A stretch of 64,000 bases of DNA from an uncultured Elusimicrobia bacterium (GCA_947306425.1 CAMZGO010000001.1:186001-250000), one strand, 5' to 3'; counted from the first letter of the stretch, positions 24,039 through 47,483 are shown. Notes: generated from the sequence alone by a model not told the origin. Numbers and translations are program-made.

Positions 24039-25397
24039 GTGGAAAACAGTAATATAAACGAAATTTGGGCAAATTTACTAAAAAAGTTAGAAATAACTTT
24101 GGGTAAAGATATTTGTGATATGTGGTTAAAACCCATGAAAATTTTAGAATTTGACCAAGGTACGTTTAAAATAGAAGTACCAAACGAAGTATGGTTAAAG
24201 ACGATTAAAGAAAGGTATGAGGCTCCTATTTTAAATGCTTTAACGGAAATTACTAACATTCCCTTTTCTGTGGATTATGTATTTCAAAAGCAAGAAGAAA
24301 TTACTCCTTTTCAAGCACCTCCTGTTGTGCATTATCATAACTATATAAAGCAATCTACAAGGGAAGAAACAAAACTTGACCCTCATTTTACTTTTCAGGG
24401 TTTCATTGAAGGCCCTTCAAACCGTTTTGCATATAAAGCATCAGAAGCTGTTGTAAAGAAAATAGGAAACAGGGCTAATAATCCTTTTGTAATTTTCAGT
24501 GCACCGGGGCTTGGTAAAACACATTTATTACATGCTATAGGAAATGATATTTTAAAAAATAATCCTTCATCAAAGGTTTTATATATGTCCGGTGAAGATT
24601 TTTTTACTCAATGTATTGATTATTTGGCTACAAAATCAACTACTGCTTTCCATAAAAAATATGAAAATATTGATTGTTTATTAATTGACGATATACAGTT
24701 TTTAGTTGGTAAAAATCGTTCCGAAGAAGAATTTTTTTATACTTTTAATTCTTTATTTAATAATCAAAAGCAAATTGTACTGACTTGTGATAAAACCCCT
24801 AATCAATTAAATTTTAGCGAACGTTTATCTTCACGTTTATTAAGTGGTATAGTTGCTGAAATTAAAAGACCTGATTTAGAAACAAGAATTGCAATTCTAC
24901 GTCATAAAAGAGATATTAATAATTATGATATATCTGATGATGTTTTATCTTTTATAGCACAAGGTGTTCAAGCAAATATAAGGGAACTTGAGGGTTGTTT
25001 ATATCGTCTTACAAGTTATGTAAGTATTCATGGTATAACCGCAACTGTTAATATTGCAAAAGAAGTTTTGGCAGATATTATAAATTTAGAACAACAAAAG
25101 TATAGTATAAGTATAACAAAGATAAAAGAAGTTGTTTGTAAACATTTTAAGGTAAACTTAGAAGATTTAAATTCTAAAAAGAAAAATACTTCAATTGCTT
25201 GGCCAAGGCAGATTGCTATGTATTTAGCAACGGAACTTACTTCTCTTTCTTTACCTGAAATCGGGAGGGAATTTAATAGGGACCATACCACTGTTATTCA
25301 TGCTAAAGAAAAAGTAAAAGAGGAAATAAAAAATAATACTTTTTTTATACCTGTGATTAATTTAATAACAGAAGAAATAAAAGCTGTGGATAACTAA
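24039..25397 (+). CDS. dnaA: replication initiator DnaA
   Basis: The 452-residue initiator has an N-terminal DnaB-interaction domain, the AAA+ module with Walker A APGLGKTHLLHAIG (near residue 165), Walker B CLLIDDIQFL, and the C-terminal DNA-binding signature REFNRDHTTVIHAKEKV. It starts with GTG at 24039. A DnaA-box variant (TTTTCCACA on the minus strand, 24038-24046) overlaps the start codon and could give autoregulation. dnaN follows after the likely origin. Confidence 0.98.
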   Translation: MENSNINEIWANLLKKLEITLGKDICDMWLKPMKILEFDQGTFKIEVPNEVWLKTIKERYEAPILNALTEITNIPFSVDYVFQKQEEITPFQAPPVVHYHNYIKQSTREETKLDPHFTFQGFIEGPSNRFAYKASEAVVKKIGNRANNPFVIFSAPGLGKTHLLHAIGNDILKNNPSSKVLYMSGEDFFTQCIDYLATKSTTAFHKKYENIDCLLIDDIQFLVGKNRSEEEFFYTFNSLFNNQKQIVLTCDKTPNQLNFSERLSSRLLSGIVAEIKRPDLETRIAILRHKRDINNYDISDDVLSFIAQGVQANIRELEGCLYRLTSYVSIHGITATVNIAKEVLADIINLEQQKYSISITKIKEVVCKHFKVNLEDLNSKKKNTSIAWPRQIAMYLATELTSLSLPEIGREFNRDHTTVIHAKEKVKEEIKNNTFFIPVINLITEEIKAVDN

Positions 25398-35747: not shown

Positions 35748-35864
35748 ATATAGAGATTTTATAAAATTTAAAAAACTTTTGCCATGTTATTGTATAAAAT
35801 GTTAATATATATTATAGCGCTTTGGCGCAGAATAATAATAAATTATAAAAAAAGAGGTATGTTT

Positions 35865-36617
35865 ATGTCAAGGAAACCTTTTATAGCAGGTAATTGGAAA
35901 ATGAATAATACTATTGAGCAAGGGGTAAATTTGGTTAATGCTCTTAAAAATGCAAAAAATAAAAATAATGCCGATATTATGGTAGCCCCTAGTTTTACGG
36001 CAATAAATGCCGTGTCAAATGCTTTAAAAGGAACAGGTTTTATCGTCGCAGCCCAAGATTGTTATTTTGAGGAAAAGGGTGCTTTCACATCACAAGTTTC
36101 ACCGGAACAAATTAAAGAAGCAGGCGCTACTGCCGTCATCTTAGGGCACAGCGAACGCCGCGCCTTATTTGGTGATACAAATGAAATTTTAAATAAAAAA
36201 ATTGCCGCTGCTTTAAGGCATGGTTTACAGGTAATTTATTGTGTGGGGGAAACTCTCTCCGAGCGCGAAGCGAATAAAATAGAACAAGTTATAACTTCCC
36301 AGCTTGAAGAAGGATTAAAAGGTTTTTCTGCTGACGAATTAAAAAATATGGTTATTGCTTATGAACCGGTTTGGGCTATCGGCACAGGCAAAACCGCTAC
36401 ACCGGAACAAGCAGAAGAAGTTCATGCTTTAATCAGGCAAGTTTTAACCAAAATATTAGGGGCTGATTTTGCAAATAATATACGCATTTTATACGGCGGT
36501 AGTGTTAAAGCGGAAAATGTAGATTCAATTATGGCTAAAGAAAATGTGGATGGGGTATTAGTCGGCGGACAAGCCTTAATAGCTGAAAAGTTTATAAGGA
36601 TTATTGACTATGAATAA
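35865..36617 (+). CDS. tpiA: triosephosphate isomerase
   Basis: This glycolytic enzyme interconverts DHAP and glyceraldehyde-3-phosphate. Catalytic residues are visible: Lys in GNWKMN, His in LGHSERR and Glu in [15 protein letters not shown], plus the phosphate-binding YGGSVK and [10 protein letters not shown] use the ATG at 35865 ([14 protein letters not shown]), which has an AGAGG site 7 nt upstream, giving 250 residues. deoC overlaps its stop. Confidence 0.97.
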
Positions 36618-37245
36618 TTTAGCAGCTTATATAGACCATACTTTATTAAAACCTACGGCCACAAAAGCAGATATTTTACAGCTTTGTGAAGAAGCAAAAC
36701 AATATCATTTTGCTTCCGTTTGTGTTAATCCCTGTTGGGTTGCCCTTTGTGCGGAAACATTAAAAGATACGGGCGTTAATGTCTGTACGGTAATAGGTTT
36801 CCCTCTAGGCGCAAATACAAGCGAAATTAAAGCCGCGGAAGCGGCCCAAGCAATAAAGCAGGGTGCAACAGAAGTTGATATGGTCATCAATATAGGTGCT
36901 TTACGGGGGGGAAATACGGAGTATGTTTACCAAGATATTTTAGCAGTTCGTAAAGCAAGCGAAGGTAAAATCTTGAAAGTTATTATTGAAACCTCGTATC
37001 TGACAAATGAAGAAAAGAAAAAAGCTTGTGAACTTTCTGCCAAAGCCGGTGCAGATTTTGTTAAGACATCTACAGGTTTCTCAAATGCAGGAGCTACGGT
37101 AGAAGACGTTAAATTAATGAAAGAAGCAAGCGGAATAAAAGTTAAAGCATCCGGCGGTGTACGCACCAAGGAAGATGCTTTAAGGATGATAGAGGCAGGG
37201 GCATCACGTCTTGGCGCAAGTGCAGGTATAAAAATAGTTTCTTAA
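36610..37245 (+). CDS. deoC: deoxyribose-phosphate aldolase
   Basis: It cleaves 2-deoxyribose-5-phosphate to acetaldehyde and glyceraldehyde-3-phosphate, feeding deoxynucleoside carbon into glycolysis next to tpi[12 protein letters not shown] opens the protein. The Schiff-base lysine is in [15 protein letters not shown], with a second lysine in [10 protein letters not shown] use the ATG at 36610 inside the end of tpiA, giving 211 residues. Confidence 0.96.
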
Positions 37246-37268: not shown

Positions 37269-40200
37269 ATGATAAGCGGGTATGATATAAGGGAAAATTC
37301 TTTAACACAAAATTCTGTTTTTTTACTTTTATTAAAAGCGGATGAAGAAGGTTGTAAACTTGTCTTAAGGGAACTTTCAGCTTTCTGTAAATTGCTGGAA
37401 GTAAAAGTCAAGGATTTTGATTATGTTTTTGAACTTTCAGGTATAACAGATGATACTATGCTTGAAAAACTTCGCGGGAAAATTGATTTTCTTTCCTCCC
37501 CCGTTCAAGAAGTACCGGGGAGTTTCAGCAATCCGAATGAAACTTCAACAATAACCGTTGCAAGCAATGGTAATATGTTGCCTAAAATTGAAAAAAATAC
37601 CGTTGTTTTTGATAAAGAAGAACTAGGACAGATTAATTTAGATGATAAAATTATTTCTCTTCCTGGATTAGACAGTCCAGGTGAAGATATTCCTTCTTTA
37701 AAAATAGCAGCAAGTGAGACCTCTCCTTCTTTAAAAATTGCTAAAGGAGAAGCTACTATAAAAGAAAATAGTATTTTTAAAACTCAAAAAAGAGAAATAT
37801 TTCAAGGCATTGATAATTTGTCAGGTAAAAAGGAAGATATTGTAGAGGAAGAAGGAATAAAAATGCCTCGGTTACCTAAGCAAGAGATTGTATCTCAGGT
37901 AGAAATAAAAAAAGAGATGCCAACAGCAGAGAAAAAAGAAGAACCTGTTGTAAAAGAAGATAATAATGTTGTCATTGATATTAAGGAGGAAATAAAAGAT
38001 ATCTCCGTAAATACAGAAGAAAAGAAAGAAAAAGGCAGTTTTTTGAGTAAGTTTCTAGGTAAATTTAAGGCATCCTTTAAGTCAAAAAAGAAAGAAGATG
38101 CCCCAAAACAAAACGTAGAAGAAGAAAAAGAAGAAAAATCAGAAAAGAAAGAAAATATTTTCTTTAAAAAAGCACAAGATATAAAAGAAAAAATTTCTTC
38201 TTCAAATATTATTAAGCAAGCAAAAGAGATTAAACAGGAACTGGAAAAAGAAATTAAAGAAGAACAACCTGTGATAGAAGAAAAAGTTCCCAATCCTTTC
38301 CAAAATTTAGGCAGCGGTATTATAGTAAAAAAAGGATTGTTGGACGCTGAACCAATAGATGAAATAGTAAAGAAAGAAAAAGAAGATTTACACTCTAATC
38401 CTTTAGAAGCAAGATTACAGGTAGATGATATCTTTGATGCTCAAACAGTTTGTGATTTTTACGCAAATCCGCAAGAAGAAAAAAATATAGATTTTGATGT
38501 CTTTGAATCTAAGAATGAAAGTTCTGCAGAAAAATCAACAAAAGTAGAAAAAAAAGAAAGTTTTGTTGATTTAAAATTACAAGAAAAAGAGGACTCCTTT
38601 AAAGCTCTTAGACAGGAAAAAAAAGAAAACAGTGAAGCAAAAACAGATAGCATAGTTATAGCTAAGCCGGGTCTTTTTTCCCAAGAAGATTTAAAGAAAC
38701 AAGAAGATAATGAGGTTCTAAAACAAGAGAAAGAACAACAAAAAGAGATAGAGCCAAAAAAAGAGGAACAACAACAAAAAGAAATTCAGCCGGAAACTGA
38801 AGAAATCCCTCCTTTATTAGTTGGTGATAATAAAAAACAGGAAAAAACAGAAGCATCGGCATCACCTTCTAATAAAAAGGAAGAAGAACAAAAAATAAAG
38901 GAAGAAGTAGCAGAAAAAAAGGTTACTGTATCCCCTCCGCTTGAGAATAAGAAAAAGAGTTCCCAAGAGACTATTAAGGAAACCAAACCTTTAAACCAAA
39001 ATGTTGTAAAAAAGGAAATTAACAAAGAGGAAAGTAAAACAAAAGAAAGTAAAAAAGAAGAAATTAAAAAAGAGGAAACAGGTATTAAAATAGAAAAAGA
39101 AGTCAATAAAGAAGGAATGAGTAAAGAAACAAAAAAGGAACAAATTTCAGAAAAAAGGATAACAACTAAAAAGGAGAAGAAAGTCATGCAAGAAAATAAT
39201 CAAGAAGAACTTAAATCTAAACAAGAAAAGCCAGCAACGGTTTCAAACCCGACAGCAAGACCTAGTTCATTAAAAAGAACGGCTAGTGTCGCTAATGGAA
39301 ATATAGACCATACTTTACATATAGCTTCTTCTTCCGGCAGTATAAAAAATAGGAATTATCCTATTGAAATGCCTTTAATACCTACTTATACTTTTGCAAA
39401 TATGGATATTTCCCCTATTCGTTTTGCTCATGCTATGGGTATGGCTACTTTGGATAGTTTAGGTGTAGCAAACAATCCTTTGTTATTGCAAGGTGTAAGC
39501 GGTACCGGTAAAACACACTTTTTATCTGCAATGGGTTATGAAATTTCAAAGAAGATACCTCAAGATAAAATTTTATTTACAAACGGGGTGCGTTTTTCAA
39601 GGGGTATACAATATTTCTTGGAGCGCGGAGAACAAGAAAAATTAGATACTTTTTTTAATAATGCACAAGTTCTAATTATAGACGATATACATTTGACGGC
39701 GGTTAATGAACATAACAGAGAGTATATTTCCAAAGTCTTAAATGATTTTCTAAAAAACAAGAAGCAAATATTGCTATCTTCTAAATATCCGCCGGAAAGT
39801 TTAAAGAGATTTGAAGAATTAGTTAATTTTAAATTTTCTCTTGGTACTATTTCGGAACTCAAGGTGCCGAATCAAACGCATTTTGCCAGATTAACTAAAA
39901 AAATCCTTACGGGTGCTTCTCTTAATTTATCTGAAAAAGAGCAGGAGGAATATTTTGTAAACAGGAATAATTCCTTAGGAGATGTTGCACGGGATGTAAA
40001 AAGAGTAAAAGTATTAAACAGACGTATTGAAAGCAGCGGTCTTAAAAAACTTACGTATAAAGAAATACTAAAAGAAATGACGGGTATTAAAGGAGAAAAT
40101 CAAAATAGTGAAATAGTCAAAAAAACTTTTGGAGATATTACTTCCCTTACAAAGAATCCGGAGGCTAATTGGGGAAATTTTGGTTTTTTCTTTCCTAATT

Positions 40201-40544
40201 CACAGATAGATAAATTCCGTTGGGTTGCTTTTGCCTCTCAAGAAACAGCAAAAGAAATTGGCATAAAAGGTGGTTTTAATTATGCTTTAAAGTCAGCTTA
40301 TTCTACGGAACATATTATTTCTGCTGCTTTTAAAATTGCAAATATTTGTGATTTAAAAGGACTGAAAGGGGCAGTTATCTTGGGGCCTTCCTTAGAGGAT
40401 TGTAAAGACCCAATAAGGGAAAATTTCTATGATATACTGACCCACATGTTAGAGGTCATGATGATACGCTGCGGAACAATTAATTTTGAAGATATTAAGA
40501 AACCAAGCGCCTATGTCAAGATGCTCGGAGATATCTTAAAATAA
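37269..40544 (+). CDS. large protein with a DnaA-like AAA+ domain and a long charged linker
   Basis: The 1,091 residues divide into a small N-terminal domain (about 1-80), a low-complexity Lys/Glu-rich region (about 150-690), a DnaA/Hda-type AAA+ domain and an extra C-terminal domain (about 930-1091). The AAA+ part has Walker A GVSGTGKTHFLSAMG (near 742), Walker B VLIIDDIHL (near 800) and an arginine-rich lid. The region before it (FANMDISPIRFAHAMGMA) resembles the DnaA FVVGxxNxxA element in position. There is no DnaA-type DNA-binding domain IV. The gene is followed 10 bases later by a lipoprotein, then comM, dprA, topA and xerC/D. The function is unknown. Confidence 0.8.
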   Translation: MISGYDIRENSLTQNSVFLLLLKADEEGCKLVLRELSAFCKLLEVKVKDFDYVFELSGITDDTMLEKLRGKIDFLSSPVQEVPGSFSNPNETSTITVASNGNMLPKIEKNTVVFDKEELGQINLDDKIISLPGLDSPGEDIPSLKIAASETSPSLKIAKGEATIKENSIFKTQKREIFQGIDNLSGKKEDIVEEEGIKMPRLPKQEIVSQVEIKKEMPTAEKKEEPVVKEDNNVVIDIKEEIKDISVNTEEKKEKGSFLSKFLGKFKASFKSKKKEDAPKQNVEEEKEEKSEKKENIFFKKAQDIKEKISSSNIIKQAKEIKQELEKEIKEEQPVIEEKVPNPFQNLGSGIIVKKGLLDAEPIDEIVKKEKEDLHSNPLEARLQVDDIFDAQTVCDFYANPQEEKNIDFDVFESKNESSAEKSTKVEKKESFVDLKLQEKEDSFKALRQEKKENSEAKTDSIVIAKPGLFSQEDLKKQEDNEVLKQEKEQQKEIEPKKEEQQQKEIQPETEEIPPLLVGDNKKQEKTEASASPSNKKEEEQKIKEEVAEKKVTVSPPLENKKKSSQETIKETKPLNQNVVKKEINKEESKTKESKKEEIKKEETGIKIEKEVNKEGMSKETKKEQISEKRITTKKEKKVMQENNQEELKSKQEKPATVSNPTARPSSLKRTASVANGNIDHTLHIASSSGSIKNRNYPIEMPLIPTYTFANMDISPIRFAHAMGMATLDSLGVANNPLLLQGVSGTGKTHFLSAMGYEISKKIPQDKILFTNGVRFSRGIQYFLERGEQEKLDTFFNNAQVLIIDDIHLTAVNEHNREYISKVLNDFLKNKKQILLSSKYPPESLKRFEELVNFKFSLGTISELKVPNQTHFARLTKKILTGASLNLSEKEQEEYFVNRNNSLGDVARDVKRVKVLNRRIESSGLKKLTYKEILKEMTGIKGENQNSEIVKKTFGDITSLTKNPEANWGNFGFFFPNSQIDKFRWVAFASQETAKEIGIKGGFNYALKSAYSTEHIISAAFKIANICDLKGLKGAVILGPSLEDCKDPIRENFYDILTHMLEVMMIRCGTINFEDIKKPSAYVKMLGDILK

Positions 40545-40553
40545 GGAGAAGAA

Positions 40554-41657
40554 ATGAAAAAGTTCCTATTTTTATTTTTGATATGTATTGTCTTTAGTGC
40601 ATGTCAAAGGTTTAACCTTGGTCCTAAAGGTGAAGGGGAATATGTAATGGCAAGTGTGGAAGTCCCTTATGTAGAGGGTGCCGTTTCCGGAATGAAAAAA
40701 GAGGGGCTGATTCTTATAGAAAAAGCTGCAGTAGAAAAGGCTGCCAGAGTCTTTTTATCTTCCAACAGTTTGCTAGAATATCCGGAAAGAGTTAAGACAG
40801 ATATCTTGGATAATTATAAAAATTATGTCAGACGCTCTTATATAGGAACTTCCTTCCGTAAAGGAGATAAATTTTACATGGAAGGCCGTGTGATGATTTT
40901 GGTAAGCAATCTCGCTACAAAGATTAAAGAAATTGAAGATAGTTCTTATGTTCGTAAAACTAATATTTTAGTCGCTTCAAGGGAAATTACAAGCGGGGAA
41001 GTTTCTTTAAAACAATATTGCCGCCAAGGTGTTTACAAAGCACTTAAAAATTTTCCTTATACATTGATTGATGGTGGAACTTTAAGTGAAAATAATCTCA
41101 CAGATTTAACTTCTTTCATTGATAAAGCCAAAAAAGAAGGCGCCCGTTTCGTAATAGTCGCGGAAGCAGAGGCCGCCCCCCTTGAAAGCGCGGCCGCTTT
41201 AACTACAACTTTCAAACCAATTAGGGCAAAGATAAATTTAAAAGTTATGGCAACAAGCAATTATCAACTTATTGCACAAGTGGCGGAAAGTGCCAGCGGG
41301 CTTGATGCCGTACAGAATTTAGCGGAGCAAAAAGCGCTAACTTCTGCTTGTCAAACGGCCACGGAACAAGTTGAGAATGCTATTACGCAAGCAATAAATT
41401 CCGCTAAAACATTTAGTTTTATAGTTACAAATGTAAATACTCTTGAACGTCTTGAGAAACTTCAAAATATAATGCGTTCGCAAAGAGATGTTGAGGACTT
41501 TGCTTTGGTTAAGTACAGAAATTCTACTGCTACTTTTACAGTGCAGGCAAAGGTTTCTACTGCAGAAGAATTTTCCGCTAAAATCTTGCGCCAGAATATA
41601 GCCAATTTTACAGTATTAAATACTTCTGCTGATATTATAACTATGGTATTTATTTAA
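40554..41657 (+). CDS. lipoprotein of unknown function in the comM-dprA operon
   Basis: MKKFLFLFLICIVFSAC gives a clear lipobox with Cys17. The 367-residue protein has an N-terminal region resembling LPP20/FlgT-like domains (EKAARVFLSSN, GDKFYMEGRVMIL), a middle domain with GARFVIVAEAEA, and a C-terminal domain around residues 280-367. I cannot name it with confidence. Its stop overlaps the comM start as TAATG, so the two are translationally coupled. Confidence 0.75.
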   Translation: MKKFLFLFLICIVFSACQRFNLGPKGEGEYVMASVEVPYVEGAVSGMKKEGLILIEKAAVEKAARVFLSSNSLLEYPERVKTDILDNYKNYVRRSYIGTSFRKGDKFYMEGRVMILVSNLATKIKEIEDSSYVRKTNILVASREITSGEVSLKQYCRQGVYKALKNFPYTLIDGGTLSENNLTDLTSFIDKAKKEGARFVIVAEAEAAPLESAAALTTTFKPIRAKINLKVMATSNYQLIAQVAESASGLDAVQNLAEQKALTSACQTATEQVENAITQAINSAKTFSFIVTNVNTLERLEKLQNIMRSQRDVEDFALVKYRNSTATFTVQAKVSTAEEFSAKILRQNIANFTVLNTSADIITMVFI

Positions 41658-43201
41658 TGCTTTCAAGTGTGCTTTCTTTAGAGGTAAAGGCTTTAGAAGG
41701 GTTTATCGTCAAAGTGGAAGTTGATATTGCCGGCGGTGCCCCTACTTTTGCTATTGTCGGATTACCGGAACAAGAAGTTAAAGAAGCCAAAGACCGTGTT
41801 CAAGCAGCCATAAGAAACAGCGGTTTTGATTTTCCTTTAAGAAAGATAACAGTTAATTTAGTTCCTGCCGAACTTAAAAAAACAGGTACGCATTTTGATT
41901 TACCGATAGCATTAGGTATTTTAGCTGCAAGCGGTGCCCTAAGTAATCAAGCACAAAACAAATTAAACGAAATGGTTTTTATAGGGGAACTTGGTTTAAA
42001 CGGTAAAATTCACTCTTGTGCCGGGGTATTGCCTATGCTTATTTCTTTAAGGAAAACCGGCAATAAAAAAGCAGTAATTCCTTTGGTTAATAAAGAAGAA
42101 GGGGAATTTGCCGATGTTCAAAATTTTGGTGCAAGTTCCTTAAAGGAAGTTGTAGATTTACTTGAAGGCAAAATTTTATTTCATCAGGAATATCAGTCTC
42201 CGAAAATTGAAAATAATTTAGAGAAATATGAACTTAAAGAGGATTTTAGTGAAGTTAAAGGCCAAGCATTAGCAAAACGTGCTTTGGAAATAGCCGCTGC
42301 TGGCGGGCACAATGTTTTGATGATTGGTACTCCCGGCACAGGGAAAAGTATGCTTGCCAAACGTTTTTCAAGTATTTTGCCTCCTTTAACTAAAGATGAA
42401 ATGCTTGAAATTTTACAAATTTATTCTGTTTGCAGAATGATTGGCAAAGGTAAAAAAGTTTTTCAAAGACCTTTTAGAGAGCCGCATCATACAATTTCAA
42501 ATATTGCGCTTATCGGCGGGGGAACAAATCCAAAACCGGGTGAAGCAAGTTTAGCACATAATGGTATTTTATTTTTAGATGAGTTTGCAGAGTTTTCCCG
42601 TAATTCCTTGGAAGTTCTGCGAGAGCCTTTGGAAACATTTAAAGTTACTATTGCCCGCGCTAAAGATACTTTAACTTTCCCGGCAAAATTTACTTTGATT
42701 GCGGCAATGAATCCTTGTCCTTGCGGATATCACGGTCATCCTGTAAAAACATGTAATTGTACTCCGGTGCAAATAAGCAGATATAAGTCAAAAGTTTCCG
42801 GTCCTTTACTTGACAGAATAGATTTAACAGTTAATTTAAACCCCGTAAATTATAAAGATTGGCAAGCAAAAAGTGAAGGTGAAACCAGCGCACAAATTCG
42901 TGAACGTGTAATCAAAGCTCGTAAGATTCAAGAAGAAAGATTTAAAAATTCCAAAACAACAGCCAATGCTTTTATGACTGTTTCCGAAATAAAAAAATAT
43001 TGTCCTTTACCGGAAGGCGGCGGTGAAATTTTGGAACTTGCCATGAAAAAGTTAGGCCTTTCTGCCAGAAGTTTAGATAAAATTTTAAAAACAGCCCGAA
43101 CTATCGCTGATTTAGAAGGCAGCACAAATATCAAAAAAGAGCATATAATAGAGGTTATGCAGTATAGGCCTTTAGATAGAAAAGGAGTTAGTGATATTTA
43201 A
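41657..43201 (+). CDS. comM: ComM/YifB-family AAA+ helicase (Mg-chelatase-like)
   Basis: This family promotes branch migration during integration of transforming DNA. The N-terminal ChlI-like domain (GGAPTFAIVGLPEQEVKEAK) is followed by Walker A MIGTPGTGKSMLAKRF, Walker B GILFLDEFAEF, the sensor region AMNPCPCGYHG with conserved cysteines (CPCG...CNC) and the arginine motif GPLLDRIDL. The length (514) is typical. It overlaps its neighbours on both sides as TAATG. Confidence 0.95.
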   Translation: MLSSVLSLEVKALEGFIVKVEVDIAGGAPTFAIVGLPEQEVKEAKDRVQAAIRNSGFDFPLRKITVNLVPAELKKTGTHFDLPIALGILAASGALSNQAQNKLNEMVFIGELGLNGKIHSCAGVLPMLISLRKTGNKKAVIPLVNKEEGEFADVQNFGASSLKEVVDLLEGKILFHQEYQSPKIENNLEKYELKEDFSEVKGQALAKRALEIAAAGGHNVLMIGTPGTGKSMLAKRFSSILPPLTKDEMLEILQIYSVCRMIGKGKKVFQRPFREPHHTISNIALIGGGTNPKPGEASLAHNGILFLDEFAEFSRNSLEVLREPLETFKVTIARAKDTLTFPAKFTLIAAMNPCPCGYHGHPVKTCNCTPVQISRYKSKVSGPLLDRIDLTVNLNPVNYKDWQAKSEGETSAQIRERVIKARKIQEERFKNSKTTANAFMTVSEIKKYCPLPEGGGEILELAMKKLGLSARSLDKILKTARTIADLEGSTNIKKEHIIEVMQYRPLDRKGVSDI

Positions 43202-44313
43202 TGAAAACGGAAGAAAAATTAGCACTAATCAAAATAAATGCCTTCAAGTATTTAAGGGCAGATTGGCTTGAACGTTTACTTGGAATTTTTGGAAGCGGTC
43301 AAGAAATTCTAAAACAAAACCCTCAAACATTAAGTGAGGAAGGTAAAATTTCCCTTGAGACTTCGGAATATTTTTTAAAATCAGCATTAGAATTAGATGC
43401 GGAAAAGGAAATAGAAAACACCGCAAAAGTGGGCGGACACATTTATATTAAAGGGGAGGAAGGTTATCCCGAAGAATTTTTAAATATTAAAGAGCCGCCA
43501 TTGGTTATTTATGTGCGCGGGGAATTAAATACAAAGTTAGCACCAACGGTTGCTATTGTCGGTACACGTAAAATTACACCTTACGGCAGACGCGCTACAA
43601 TAAAACTCGCCGGTGATTTAGCAGATGCCGGTATTGTAATAGTCAGCGGTCTTGCAAGGGGAATAGACAGCGTAGCCCACACAGAAGCCGTTAAACGCAA
43701 AAAACCTACTTGGGCCTTAATCGGTACTGGTATTGGTAGATGCTATCCTGCCGAAAATAAGGAACTTGCCTTAGGTATTATTGAAACGGGCGGTGCTTTA
43801 ATTTCTGAATATCCTTTTGCCACCCCTCCATTAGCGCAGCATTTTCCAAGAAGAAACAGGTTAATAGCGGCTTTATCAAGGGTAGCTGTTATAATTGAGG
43901 GGGAAGTTAAATCAGGCGCTTTAATAACCGCCAAAATGGCTTTAGAACAAGGAATAGATGTCTTTGCTGTTCCCGGTCCTATTGATTCCCCTACCAGCGG
44001 TGGCCCGAATAAATTGATAAAAGAAGGAGCCGGCATTTGTTTGGATGCACGCGATATTATTGATGCTTTACCTGTTAATATAAAAAGCACTTTAGTAACA
44101 AAAGAATTGTATAATAACAAGGAAGAAATACCTGATTTATCCCCTGAAGAATCAAAAATAATGGAAGCTATTGATGAGGGGGAAAGCACAGTTGATGAAC
44201 TTTCAGTTAAATTAAATATGGATGTTCCAAGCTTATCAACAGTTTTATTTTCGCTTGAAATAAGCGGTTATTTAAGATGCGAAGATGGCAAATATTCAAA
44301 AGTAAAAATTTAG
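43201..44313 (+). CDS. dprA: DNA-processing protein DprA
   Basis: DprA loads RecA on incoming single-stranded DNA during natural transformation. The Rossmann-like DprA domain shows VAIVGTRKITPYGRR, VSGLARGIDSVAH, GTGIGRCYPAENKEL and FPRRNRLIAALS. A C-terminal winged-helix region (about 300-370) follows. Coupling to comM points to a competence function, although no DNA-uptake machinery other than pilins is in the window. Confidence 0.96.
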   Translation: MKTEEKLALIKINAFKYLRADWLERLLGIFGSGQEILKQNPQTLSEEGKISLETSEYFLKSALELDAEKEIENTAKVGGHIYIKGEEGYPEEFLNIKEPPLVIYVRGELNTKLAPTVAIVGTRKITPYGRRATIKLAGDLADAGIVIVSGLARGIDSVAHTEAVKRKKPTWALIGTGIGRCYPAENKELALGIIETGGALISEYPFATPPLAQHFPRRNRLIAALSRVAVIIEGEVKSGALITAKMALEQGIDVFAVPGPIDSPTSGGPNKLIKEGAGICLDARDIIDALPVNIKSTLVTKELYNNKEEIPDLSPEESKIMEAIDEGESTVDELSVKLNMDVPSLSTVLFSLEISGYLRCEDGKYSKVKI

Positions 44314-44338
44314 ATTTATTTAATTTAGAGGTGTGACC

Positions 44339-46615
44339 ATGACATTACAAAAATCTACTATAGGCAAAGCGCTTGTTATTGTGGAATCTCCCACAAAACA
44401 ACGCACTATAAGCAAAATTTTAGGTCCTAATTATATTGTTAAAAGTTCTTTCGGGCATGTTAGGGATTTACCTTCAAAAGAAATCGGTGTTGATGAGCAG
44501 CATGATTTTAAACCTACTTATGTAGTAAGCGGCAAACCCCGCATTATCGCAGATTTAAAAGAAGCAGTTAAAAAAGCCGCAATAGTTTATCTTGCCACAG
44601 ACCCTGATAGAGAAGGGGAGGCTATCGCTTGGCACTTGGAGCAGCTTTTAAAACTTAAACCGGAAAATACACGCCGTATTTTCTTCCATGAAATTACGGA
44701 TACCGCAATTAAAGAAAGTTTTGATAATGCCCGTGCAATTGACCATAATTTGGTTGATGCCCAACAGGCAAGGCGTGTGTTGGACCGTCTTGTAGGTTAT
44801 AAAATTTCCCCGCTTTTATGGCGTAAAATTACAAGTGGTTTAAGTGCTGGGCGTGTACAGTCCGTAGCAGTTCGTTTGCTTGCTGAAAGAGCGAAAGAAA
44901 TTGCAGATTTCAAAAGCAAAGTTTATTGGACTTTGCGTGCTAAACTTGAAAAGAAAGATACAAAACCGCAATTTTTTGCCCGTGTTTTAAAATGGCAAGG
45001 CAAAAATGTTGAAAGCACGACAACTTATAAACTTTTTGCGGAAGATTATAAAGTTAAATCTACTGTTTTTGATACCAATGAAAGTTTAGCAGTAGTAAAT
45101 GAAGCTTTACGTAAAGGCCCTTTAACCGTAGAAAAAGTTGAAAAGAAGGAAGTAAAACAACATCCTAAACCTCCTTTCATTACAAGCACTTTACAGCAAG
45201 ATGCTTATAATAAACTTGGGTTTTCCCCTCAAAAAACAATGCAAACGGCACAATCTTTATACGAAGGTGTGGAAATTGCCGGTAAAAATGTCGGTTTGAT
45301 TACTTATATGAGAACGGATTCTTTTAATGTTTCCAAACTCCTTCAAACCCAGACAAATAAATTTATTAAAGAAAAATACGGTCCGCAATTTTCCCCCGCA
45401 AAAGCACCTGTTTATAAAGGTAAAGTAAAAGGTGCGCAAGAAGCACATGAGGCTATTCACCCTACTGATGTTTTTAAAACACCTCAAAGTATAAAAAATT
45501 CTTTGACGGCAGACCAATATAAACTTTATGAACTTATATGGCTTCGCTTTGTAGCTTCACAAATGGCTGATGCAATATTTAATACCGTAAGTATAGATAT
45601 TTCCGCCGGAAGTAAAGAAAATTGTTTGCTTCGTGCAAACGGGAGAACAGTCAAATTTGAGGGTTATCTCTCTGTTTACAAAGATGATGAACCGGAAGAA
45701 AATGAAAAAGAAGATTCCCAAACTGCACTTTTGCCCGCTTTGGAAGAAGGGAACACTCTTAATTTAGTTGATATTGAAACTAAAGATCATAAAACCGCAC
45801 CTCCGCCAAATTATAATGAGGCAAGTTTGATTAAAACATTGGAAAAGCACGGTATCGGCCGTCCGTCTACTTATGCGCCGACGATAAAAACAATTATGGA
45901 CAGAAAGTATATTGAGAAACTTCCTAAATCTACTAAACTTACGGCAACACCATTGGGAATAAGAGTAACAGAACATCTTAAAGAATTTTTTAAAGATATC
46001 ATGGACCTTTCTTATACCGCCGGAGTTGAGGAAAAACTTGATGATATCGCCGAAGGTAATAAGAAATGGGTGGATGTTTTATCTAATTTTTACAACGGTT
46101 TTTCAAGAGATTTAAAAAATGCTTCACAGAATATGATTTCTTCCGAACCTGTTAAAACAGATGAAAAATGCCCGATTTGTCAAAAACCGATGCTTTTAAA
46201 GCATAGCAGGTACGGGGAATATTTGGTTTGTTCTGATTATCCTAAGTGTAAAGGTAAGAAGAATTTGAATGGAAAGACTTCAGTCCCTGTACAACAAACG
46301 AATGAAATATGCGAAAAATGCGGTTCGCCCATGGTTATTAGAACAGGCCGCCGAGGGCAATTTATGGCTTGTTCGGCATATCCGAAATGTAAAAACACTT
46401 ATTCCATAAACGCAGAAGGTCAAAAAATTGCTGCAAAAATTGCCTTAGATTCCGGTAAAAAATGCCCAAAATGTGGTAAAGCGATGTTACTCCGACACTC
46501 TGCACGCGGTGCGTTTTTAGGATGTTCGGGATATCCTAAATGTAAGACCATTATACAGGTTTCGCCGGAGGAGATTAAAGAAATAGAATCTAAAAATGCA
46601 ACAGCAGATAAATAA
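44339..46615 (+). CDS. topA: DNA topoisomerase I
   Basis: This type IA topoisomerase relaxes negative supercoils. The TOPRIM domain (ALVIVESPTKQRTISKIL and ATDPDREGEAIAWHL) precedes the catalytic Tyr in GLITYMRTDS. Three C4 zinc-finger-like units close the protein: CPICQKPM, CEKCGSPM and CPKCGKAM, each paired with a C...YPKC motif. I use the ATG at 44339, 7 nt after GAGG, rather than the GTG two codons earlier. This gives 758 residues. Confidence 0.97.
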   Translation: MTLQKSTIGKALVIVESPTKQRTISKILGPNYIVKSSFGHVRDLPSKEIGVDEQHDFKPTYVVSGKPRIIADLKEAVKKAAIVYLATDPDREGEAIAWHLEQLLKLKPENTRRIFFHEITDTAIKESFDNARAIDHNLVDAQQARRVLDRLVGYKISPLLWRKITSGLSAGRVQSVAVRLLAERAKEIADFKSKVYWTLRAKLEKKDTKPQFFARVLKWQGKNVESTTTYKLFAEDYKVKSTVFDTNESLAVVNEALRKGPLTVEKVEKKEVKQHPKPPFITSTLQQDAYNKLGFSPQKTMQTAQSLYEGVEIAGKNVGLITYMRTDSFNVSKLLQTQTNKFIKEKYGPQFSPAKAPVYKGKVKGAQEAHEAIHPTDVFKTPQSIKNSLTADQYKLYELIWLRFVASQMADAIFNTVSIDISAGSKENCLLRANGRTVKFEGYLSVYKDDEPEENEKEDSQTALLPALEEGNTLNLVDIETKDHKTAPPPNYNEASLIKTLEKHGIGRPSTYAPTIKTIMDRKYIEKLPKSTKLTATPLGIRVTEHLKEFFKDIMDLSYTAGVEEKLDDIAEGNKKWVDVLSNFYNGFSRDLKNASQNMISSEPVKTDEKCPICQKPMLLKHSRYGEYLVCSDYPKCKGKKNLNGKTSVPVQQTNEICEKCGSPMVIRTGRRGQFMACSAYPKCKNTYSINAEGQKIAAKIALDSGKKCPKCGKAMLLRHSARGAFLGCSGYPKCKTIIQVSPEEIKEIESKNATADK

Positions 46616-47483
46616 TTTTTTGCAAGGACTTAGGGTGCGAAACATGTCACCCCATACTTTAAGGGCCTATAGTAAGGACTTAGAGGCTGCTTATACTTTT
46701 TTTGCAAAAAATAATTTAACCCAAATAAAAGATTTTAATATTAGAAATATTCGTTCTTATCTTTCTGTAGAAAATAATAGTCAAATAAAGCGCAATACTA
46801 TGCTTCGTAAAATCAGTTCGCTAAGGAGTTTCGCTAAATTTTTGGAAACACGCGGCCTCATTAAATTAAATCCTTTTAAACTTTTTGATGCTCCTAAACG
46901 GGAGAAATTATTACCGAAATTTTTGACGGAAGAAGAAGCATCAAATTTAATGGAAGCACAACCTAGCAAATTGCATGCTTTAAGGAATAAAGCCATTTTA
47001 GAATTATTATACTCAAGCGGCCTTAGGCGAAGTGAATTGACAAATTTAAATATTTGCGATATAAATTTCCAACAAGGTTATGCAAAAGTTTTGGGTAAGG
47101 GCTCAAAAGAGAGGTTGGTTCCGATAACCGATATCGCTATTGAAAGTATACAAAATTATCTTTTAACCCGCCCGAAATATTTACCTGCTGACCCTTTATT
47201 TTTAAGCAGTTATCAACGTCGTATCAGCGGCGAAGGTATAAGGCAAATTATTAAACAAAGTGCAATAAATACAAAACTTGCCCGCCGTATAACACCGCAT
47301 AGTTTAAGGCATAGTTTTGCCACACATTTGTTAAGCAACGGATGTGATTTAAAGACCTTGCAAGAAATGCTTGGTCATAAAAGCTTGAGTGCAACGCAGG
47401 TCTACACACATGTTTCTCTTGAACGTATAAAAAATGTTTATAATCATAGTCATCCGAAAAGTAAAATAGGAGGGCAAAAATGA
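46596..47483 (+). CDS. xerC: tyrosine recombinase, XerC/XerD type
   Basis: It resolves chromosome dimers at dif, or otherwise acts as a site-specific recombinase. The 295-residue product has the SAM-like N-terminal domain (NMSPHTLRAYSKDL) and all catalytic residues: Arg in SGLRRSEL, Lys in GKGSKERLVPI, HSLRHSFATHLL, His in LGHKSLS and the Tyr nucleophile in TQVYTHV. The start lies inside the end of topA. Housekeeping position and length favour Xer over a phage integrase. XerC versus XerD cannot be decided here. Confidence 0.88.
   Translation: MQQQINNFLQGLRVRNMSPHTLRAYSKDLEAAYTFFAKNNLTQIKDFNIRNIRSYLSVENNSQIKRNTMLRKISSLRSFAKFLETRGLIKLNPFKLFDAPKREKLLPKFLTEEEASNLMEAQPSKLHALRNKAILELLYSSGLRRSELTNLNICDINFQQGYAKVLGKGSKERLVPITDIAIESIQNYLLTRPKYLPADPLFLSSYQRRISGEGIRQIIKQSAINTKLARRITPHSLRHSFATHLLSNGCDLKTLQEMLGHKSLSATQVYTHVSLERIKNVYNHSHPKSKIGGQK

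What the first reader, a model, noticed from the sequence alone, without database searches (positions are those of the whole stretch)
37269..40544. 1,091-residue protein with a DnaA-like AAA+ module embedded in a competence/topology operon
Its ATPase core (GVSGTGKTHFLS, LIIDDIHL) resembles the true DnaA of this window, but it lacks the DnaA-box-binding domain. It carries about 500 residues of Lys/Glu-rich, probably disordered sequence, plus unfamiliar N- and C-terminal domains. It sits at the head of lipoprotein-comM-dprA-topA-xer, which suggests a DNA-related or cell-pole/envelope-linked role. I know no described family with this build.
Basis: partly seen in the sequence, partly recalled or inferred. 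Interest (0 to 1): 0.7.

Follow-up and report, generated by a model that had tools for sequence, protein, structure and literature searches.

The report
DnaA-derived ATPase with Argonaute-MID-like tail
This is a real, phylum-wide protein of the bacterial group Elusimicrobiota, made from a copy of the replication initiator DnaA whose DNA-binding end was replaced by a domain folded like the guide-gripping part of Argonaute, and its gene usually sits beside the motor gene for pilus retraction, so it probably works in pilus control or DNA uptake rather than in starting replication.

Summary
The ORF is real (1091 aa, window 37269-40544). It belongs to a single-origin DnaA paralog family found in 49 of 77 sampled Elusimicrobiota genomes. 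Architecture: small N-domain (1-80), disordered K/E-rich linker (606 residues here, about 40-300 in most other families), DnaA-type AAA+ core (about 698-925), C-domain (964-1091). The C-domain model (pLDDT 92.7) has all of its 50 best structural matches in Argonaute/Piwi MID domains (Z 14.2, 2.7 Å over 118 of 128 residues), yet lacks the lysine of the 5'-phosphate motif in all 72 relatives and has no PIWI partner. DnaA's box-binding domain IV and ssDNA-contacting lysine are gone. In most other families the gene order is deoC - pilT - partner (same C-domain) - this gene - GAF histidine kinase - comM - dprA - topA; the window's family has lost the pilT linkage and the partner. Best explanation: an ATP-binding, DnaA-derived switch or scaffold of type IV pilus / DNA-uptake control. 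Identity and architecture are well supported; function is inferred from context only. I found no described family with this build.

The parts
37269..40544 (+). DnaA-derived AAA+ / MID-like protein, 1091 aa (the finding)
   Evidence: ORF and translation; one ortholog in the own genome; dN/dS well below 1 in the AAA+ and C-domains
37269..37508 (+). N-domain, residues 1-80, strand-strand-helix-strand-strand-helix; conserved across the phylum, no known family
   Evidence: Alignment A2 of 44 sequences; AF2 pLDDT 86; no clear fold match, best Z 5.5; no Pfam match
37521..39338 (+). Disordered Lys/Glu-rich linker, residues 85-690; greatly expanded in Elusimicrobiaceae
   Evidence: 18.2% K, 16.8% E, 0% W; relaxed constraint (dN/dS about 0.4); about 40-300 residues in most other families
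39360..40043 (+). DnaA-type AAA+ core, residues about 698-925; Walker A 742-750 (39492-39518), Walker B 802-809 (39672-39695)
   Evidence: Pfam Bac_DnaA E 3e-24 at 706-861; PDB DnaA chains E 6e-21; motif table
40158..40541 (+). C-domain, residues 964-1091, Rossmannoid Argonaute-MID-like fold
   Evidence: AF2 pLDDT 92.7; all 50 best VIA-align rows are Argonaute/Piwi MID, Z 11.5-14.2; 5'-phosphate motif absent
35784..37245 (+). tpiA and deoC, same strand, immediately upstream
   Evidence: ORFs; deoC is also conserved upstream of the pilT-linked version in other families
40554..41657 (+). Conserved lipoprotein gene directly downstream
   Evidence: ORF, LPAM_1 weak, conserved neighbour
41657..47483 (+). 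comM, dprA, topA, xerC (overlapping or nearly overlapping ORFs, likely one transcript)
   Evidence: ORF coordinates and conserved order across Elusimicrobiaceae and, in part, other Elusimicrobiia; gene names by recognition of the sequences
24039..25397 (+). The true DnaA of the genome, for comparison
   Evidence: TIGR00362 473.8 bits, over cut-off 343.9; domains I, III and IV present

Best explanation
SHOWN: the protein is a member of a single-origin DnaA paralog family of Elusimicrobiota in which DnaA domain I was replaced by a new small alpha/beta domain and domain IV (the DnaA-box HTH) by a MID-like Rossmannoid domain. The ancestral gene context, still seen in most families, is pilT - partner gene carrying the same C-domain - this gene - GAF histidine kinase. 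The window's family has lost the partner and the pilT linkage. INFERRED: it is an ATP-dependent cytoplasmic switch or scaffold of the type IV pilus / DNA-uptake apparatus. The DnaA-type AAA+ core binds ATP and, in basal members that keep the arginine finger and sensor II, assembles into DnaA-like oligomers. The MID-like domain and N-domain pair with the partner protein and dock on the pilus motor or its regulators, and the sensor kinase feeds in a signal. In the window's family the trans-acting arginine finger and sensor II are gone, so it most likely works as an ATP-bound adaptor without DnaA-like filament assembly, tethered through a very long flexible linker. It does not act as a replication initiator.
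For: AAA+ tree splits DnaA from this family 100/100. Walker A Lys is present in 31/31 DnaA, 14/14 basal and 49/49 Elusimicrobiia members; the box VII Arg and sensor II Arg are kept in all DnaA and basal members but lost in the window; the ssDNA-contact Lys of DnaA is present in 27/31 DnaA and 0/63 members. C-domain model pLDDT 92.7 and MID fold Z 14.2. pilT lies within three genes upstream on the same strand in 27 of 44 loci and a partner gene with the same C-domain in 31 of 44; partner and target C-domains are homologous (hhalign prob 97.5, E 8e-12). GAF-HisKA-HATPase kinase immediately downstream in many loci. All 49 family-positive genomes of the 77-genome sample also have strong PilT-family matches. 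dN/dS 0.04-0.09 in the AAA+ and C-domains.
Against: Function rests on gene neighbourhood and motif reading only; no experiment exists. In the window's own family neither pilT nor the partner is nearby, and the partner is absent from all 10 family genomes checked, so the ancestral role may have changed. 14 sampled genomes have PilT without this gene, so it is not a core pilus part. The co-occurrence with PilT is not phylogenetically independent. DNA-processing genes (comM, dprA, topA; recJ in some basal loci) are as close as the pilus gene in several lineages.
Confidence: 0.45

Rival explanations
1. It is a DNA-processing factor of natural transformation: it meets incoming single strands at the pilus/ComEC entry point, the MID-like domain holds a strand end or nucleotide, and the AAA+ core passes the strand to DprA, ComM and recombination.
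For: comM, dprA and topA follow directly in Elusimicrobiaceae and many other Elusimicrobiia; recJ (ssDNA exonuclease) follows directly in three basal loci; pilT lies upstream. The MID fold is a nucleic-acid-end-binding fold in Argonautes.
Against: The lysine of the 5'-phosphate motif is absent in 72/72 C-domains and the DnaA ssDNA-contact Lys in 63/63 members. ComEC is present in all 43 genomes tested, including those without this gene, so it is not required for DNA import.
Confidence: 0.22
2. It is a replication regulator like Hda or a modified helicase loader: a DnaA-like AAA+ that contacts true DnaA on ATP-DnaA or at the replisome.
For: The AAA+ core is clearly DnaA-derived, and basal members exceed the DnaA equivalog cut-off. 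Domain-IV-less DnaA relatives such as Hda exist (general knowledge).
Against: Hda model score 31.6 against cut-off 194.8. The gene neighbourhood is pilus, signalling and competence, not replication. The distance to dnaA is not conserved (about 15 kb here, 190 kb in G007). The window member lacks the arginine finger and sensor II used in DnaA-DnaA contacts. DciA, the usual bacterial loader, is reported in the phylum (PMC5109545).
Confidence: 0.15
3. It is a genuine guide-using, Argonaute-like system in which the MID domain anchors short nucleic acids and the AAA+ core replaces PIWI as effector.
For: The C-domain's best structural matches are all MID domains; it resembles Argonaute MID in fold over its full length.
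Against: No PIWI in the own genome. YKQK motif not met: the second-position Lys is absent in 72/72 and the Gln is present only in some basal members. Profile-profile similarity to short-pAgo MID is insignificant (prob 7.4). The neighbourhood is housekeeping rather than defence.
Confidence: 0.04

Closest known systems
Bacterial DnaA (TIGR00362, Pfam Bac_DnaA PF00308)
   Same: AAA+ core with Walker A/B; basal members also keep sensor I, arginine finger (box VII) and sensor II; same overall order of an N-domain, flexible linker and AAA+ core
   Different: No DnaA_N and no DnaA-box HTH; ssDNA-contact Lys lost; in the window's family arginine finger and sensor II lost; new N- and C-domains; linked to pilT / kinase / comM / dprA rather than to the replication operon
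Hda / DnaC / DnaI / IstB (domain-IV-less DnaA relatives)
   Same: DnaA-like AAA+ without a DnaA-box domain
   Different: Scores far below their NCBIfam cut-offs; those are AAA+ cores or AAA+ with a helicase- or clamp-binding N-terminus, none with a MID-like C-domain (general knowledge)
Argonaute / Piwi MID domain
   Same: Rossmannoid fold, Z up to 14.2 over 118 of 128 residues
   Different: No PIWI partner, lysine of the 5'-phosphate motif absent, insignificant profile-profile score, fused to a DnaA-type AAA+
pPIWI-RE and MED13 modules (PMC3702460)
   Same: Divergent MID-containing modules outside classical Argonautes, MED13 with long disordered inserts
   Different: Both keep a PIWI/RNase H domain and conserved 5'-end pocket residues; this protein has neither

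Membership tests
DnaA (replication initiator) | DnaA-type AAA+ ATPase core | tested here: met
   Bac_DnaA E 3e-24; PDB DnaA chains down to E 6e-21
DnaA (replication initiator) | Domain IV, DnaA-box-binding HTH (PF08299) | tested here: not met
   No match in this protein, 100.6 bits in the true DnaA; the position is held by the MID-like domain
DnaA (replication initiator) | Equivalog score over TIGR00362 cut-off 343.9 | tested here: not met
   109.4 bits for the window protein; nine basal relatives exceed it although they lack domain IV
DnaA (replication initiator) | ssDNA-contacting basic residue of the initiator-specific motif (Aquifex K188 position; identification from own knowledge) | tested here: not met
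   K in 27/31 DnaA, 0/14 basal and 0/49 other members
DnaA (replication initiator) | Arginine finger (box VII) and sensor II Arg | tested here: not met
   Box VII is K in the window protein and the sensor II column is not aligned there; both Arg are present in all DnaA and all 14 basal members
Hda | NCBIfam TIGR03420 cut-off 194.8 | tested here: not met
   31.6 bits
Hda | Clamp-binding motif and stimulation of DnaA-ATP hydrolysis | not testable with these tools
   Biochemical
IstB / DnaC helicase loaders | NCBIfam cut-offs (NF038214 and others) | tested here: not met
   41.1 against 200 and lower; Pfam IstB_IS21 31.9 against 24.1 passes, but Bac_DnaA is far better (86.4)
Argonaute MID domain | MID Rossmannoid fold | tested here: met
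   All 50 listed best matches are Argonaute/Piwi MID, Z 11.5-14.2; Foldseek top hit MjAgo E 8e-5
Argonaute MID domain | 5'-phosphate motif (Y/H/R)-K-Q-K | tested here: not met
   Second-position Lys 0/72; Gln 9/72, all in basal members; the terminal Lys could not be placed with certainty (motif from PMC6299218)
Argonaute MID domain | Followed by a PIWI domain | tested here: not met
   The domain ends the protein; no Piwi match in the own genome
Argonaute MID domain | Significant profile-profile similarity to pAgo MID | tested here: inconclusive
   hhalign prob 7.4, P 0.005, in the expected register, against 11 short pAgos
Type IV pilus core machinery | Present wherever the pilus is | tested here: not met
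   14 of 77 genomes have PilT without this gene; an accessory link by pilT adjacency in 27/44 loci

The most novel reading that the evidence does not exclude
A nucleic-acid-handling machine not yet described: a DnaA-derived AAA+ ATPase and a partner that both carry an Argonaute-MID-type domain work at the type IV pilus, where the MID-like domains recognise a strand end or nucleotide and the AAA+ core acts on imported DNA or gates pilus retraction, with a sensor kinase as input.
Probability: 0.15. Interest if true: 0.85.

Novelty: new variant of a known kind. Interest (0 to 1): 0.6.

Why it matters
DnaA is among the most conserved bacterial proteins. A phylum-wide copy that swapped its origin-binding domain for an Argonaute-MID-type fold, and moved next to the pilus retraction motor, shows the initiator ATPase recruited to a job apparently unrelated to replication. 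It also appears to place a MID-type domain in a protein without PIWI, which bears on what that fold did before or outside guide binding. Practically, nine basal members exceed the DnaA equivalog cut-off although they lack the DNA-binding domain, so they may be misnamed DnaA. The pilT - partner - this gene - kinase module makes its role directly testable.

Tried and rejected
Pfam and NCBIfam for the N- and C-domains gave no significant match. PDB sequence search with the C-domain alone or its profile gave nothing credible. The N-domain fold search gave no clear match (best Z 5.5, Foldseek best E 0.2), so it is left as an unassigned small alpha/beta domain. Profile comparison of the C-domain with eleven real short-pAgo MID domains was not significant, so homology to MID is not claimed, only fold. 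Proximity to dnaA is incidental: 15 kb here, not conserved. Phyletic co-occurrence with ComEC is uninformative because ComEC is universal. Co-occurrence with PilT holds (49/49) but is not phylogenetically independent. Plasmids gave no match for the C-domain, and the viral scan could not run with the alignment. An E. coli-style helicase-loader role was considered and set aside, since DciA is reported for the phylum.

Full report
WHAT WAS CHECKED. The ORF at 37269-40544 exists as described: ATG start, 1091 aa, an RBS-like purine stretch, Walker A at residues 742-750 and Walker B at 802-809. Among DnaA domains, Pfam finds only the ATPase domain (706-861, E 3e-24), while the window's true DnaA at 24039-25397 shows domains I, III and IV. 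The NCBIfam DnaA score is 109.4 against a cut-off of 343.9. The linker has 606 residues with 18.2% K and 16.8% E. tpiA and deoC precede it on the same strand, so it does not head the operon.

DISTRIBUTION. The window comes from an Elusimicrobiaceae genome; named relatives are mostly rumen and gut Elusimicrobiaceae MAGs. A search of 247 genomes of the phylum with residues 700-1091 gave, in most genomes outside one family (f12), two matches: true DnaA and this paralog. With the C-domain profile, 49 of 77 sampled genomes have the paralog. It is absent from all 22 f12 genomes, all three f5 genomes, two f4 genomes of one genus and the one f11 genome. I extracted orthologs from about 60 loci.

ARCHITECTURE. 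Three folded parts recur: an N-domain of about 80 residues (A2, 44 sequences), the AAA+ core, and a C-domain of about 128 residues (A1, 72 sequences). The linker between N-domain and AAA+ is about 40-300 residues in most families but about 430-1150 in complete copies from the window's genus. dN/dS against four close relatives is 0.04-0.09 for the AAA+ and C-domains, about 0.4 for the linker and 0.2-0.6 for the N-domain.

ATPase CORE. The AAA+ tree puts 31 DnaA and 30 paralogs on opposite sides of one branch with 100/100 support, consistent with a single origin of the paralog. Nine basal members score 345-373 bits on the DnaA model, over the cut-off, and basal members keep Walker A/B, sensor I Asp, box VII Arg and sensor II Arg. 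The Elusimicrobiia members, the window included, keep Walker A/B; box VII Arg and sensor II Arg are mostly lost there, and both are lost in the window protein. The position of DnaA's ssDNA-contacting lysine is K in 27/31 DnaA and never K in 63 paralogs. So ATP binding is probably ancestral and retained, origin unwinding is unlikely, and DnaA-style inter-subunit contact is probably lost in the window's lineage. Residue roles come from general knowledge of DnaA; the counts are measured.

C-DOMAIN. AlphaFold2 gives pLDDT 92.7 with four strands alternating with four helices. Foldseek's top PDB hit is M. jannaschii Argonaute (E 8e-5), followed by a mix of Rossmannoids and MID domains. VIA-align ranks Argonaute/Piwi MID domains in all 50 listed rows, Z 14.2 to 11.5, best 2.7 Å over 118 of 128 residues. 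Profile-profile comparison with eleven genuine short-pAgo MID domains is not significant (prob 7.4). The 5'-phosphate motif (Y/H/R)-K-Q-K (PMC6299218) is not kept: the second residue is never K in 72 sequences, and Q occurs in 9, all basal. The own genome has no PIWI. So it is MID-like by fold, not shown to be MID by descent or by function.

N-DOMAIN. pLDDT 86, strand-strand-helix-strand-strand-helix; no convincing structural match (best Z 5.5).

NEIGHBOURHOOD. Of 44 loci with enough flank, 27 have a pilT homolog within three genes upstream on the same strand, and 31 have a partner gene carrying the same C-domain, directly upstream in most cases. Partner and target C-domains match at hhalign prob 97.5, E 8e-12. 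Some partners also carry the N-domain. A GAF-HisKA-HATPase histidine kinase follows within four genes in 25 loci, then lipoprotein and CsgG-type genes and comM, dprA, topA in Elusimicrobiia; recJ follows in three basal loci. With roughly 7-10 PilT-family genes per genome, chance adjacency would be of the order of 1%. The window's family keeps deoC - this gene - lipoprotein - comM - dprA - topA - xerC, and the partner is absent from all ten genomes of that family tested.

READING. The most economical account is a DnaA copy recruited into a pilT-linked module with a partner and a sensor kinase, acting as an ATP-binding switch or scaffold for pilus retraction or DNA uptake, later slimmed in the window's family to a long-linkered adaptor beside comM-dprA-topA. 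Rivals are a DNA-processing factor of transformation, a Hda-like replication regulator, and a guide-using Argonaute-like system, in falling order of likelihood. The pilus link is by context only. All 49 gene-positive genomes also have PilT, but 14 genomes without the gene have PilT too, so it is accessory, and the co-occurrence is not phylogenetically independent.

NOVELTY. In the held papers I found no description of a DnaA-type AAA+ joined to a MID-like domain, nor of this module. The search for homologs outside the phylum was limited, so confinement to Elusimicrobiota is not claimed. I file it as a new variant of the DnaA-derived AAA+ kind: the core is known, the build and setting are not.

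Noticed in passing
L096:1033-2430 (-), genome G114, same family as the window: A genuine short prokaryotic Argonaute (465 aa, E 2e-123 to PDB chain 8in8_C) with an adjacent upstream ORF; the only Piwi match over the curated cut-off in 247 genomes of the phylum.
   Followed up: partly
G000:C1:70314-70745 (-), outside the window: A second ComEC N-terminal match with two in-frame TAA stops lies about 1.3 kb from the intact comEC match at 72094-72612, probably a broken copy.
   Followed up: no
Basal orthologs such as G041:C14:40449-41327 and G077:C23:32119-33045: Nine domain-IV-less paralogs exceed the TIGR00362 DnaA equivalog cut-off and may be misnamed DnaA by automatic annotation.
   Followed up: partly
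L081:4039-5481 (+): A third protein with the N-domain (about 480 aa) lies upstream of pilT in this locus, so the N-domain is a reusable part of the module.
   Followed up: no
G168:C10:68166-68516 (-): A stand-alone copy of the C-domain in a 258-aa open frame away from the main locus (E 6e-23).
   Followed up: no
Window 24039-25397: The true DnaA of this genome sits on a long branch (1.1 changes per column) among Elusimicrobiota DnaA, i.e. it evolves fast in this lineage.
   Followed up: no
G008:C5:2688-4037 (-): An f12 genome holds a second full DnaA match (458 bits) inside a 709-aa open frame, a possible DnaA fusion or duplicate.
   Followed up: no
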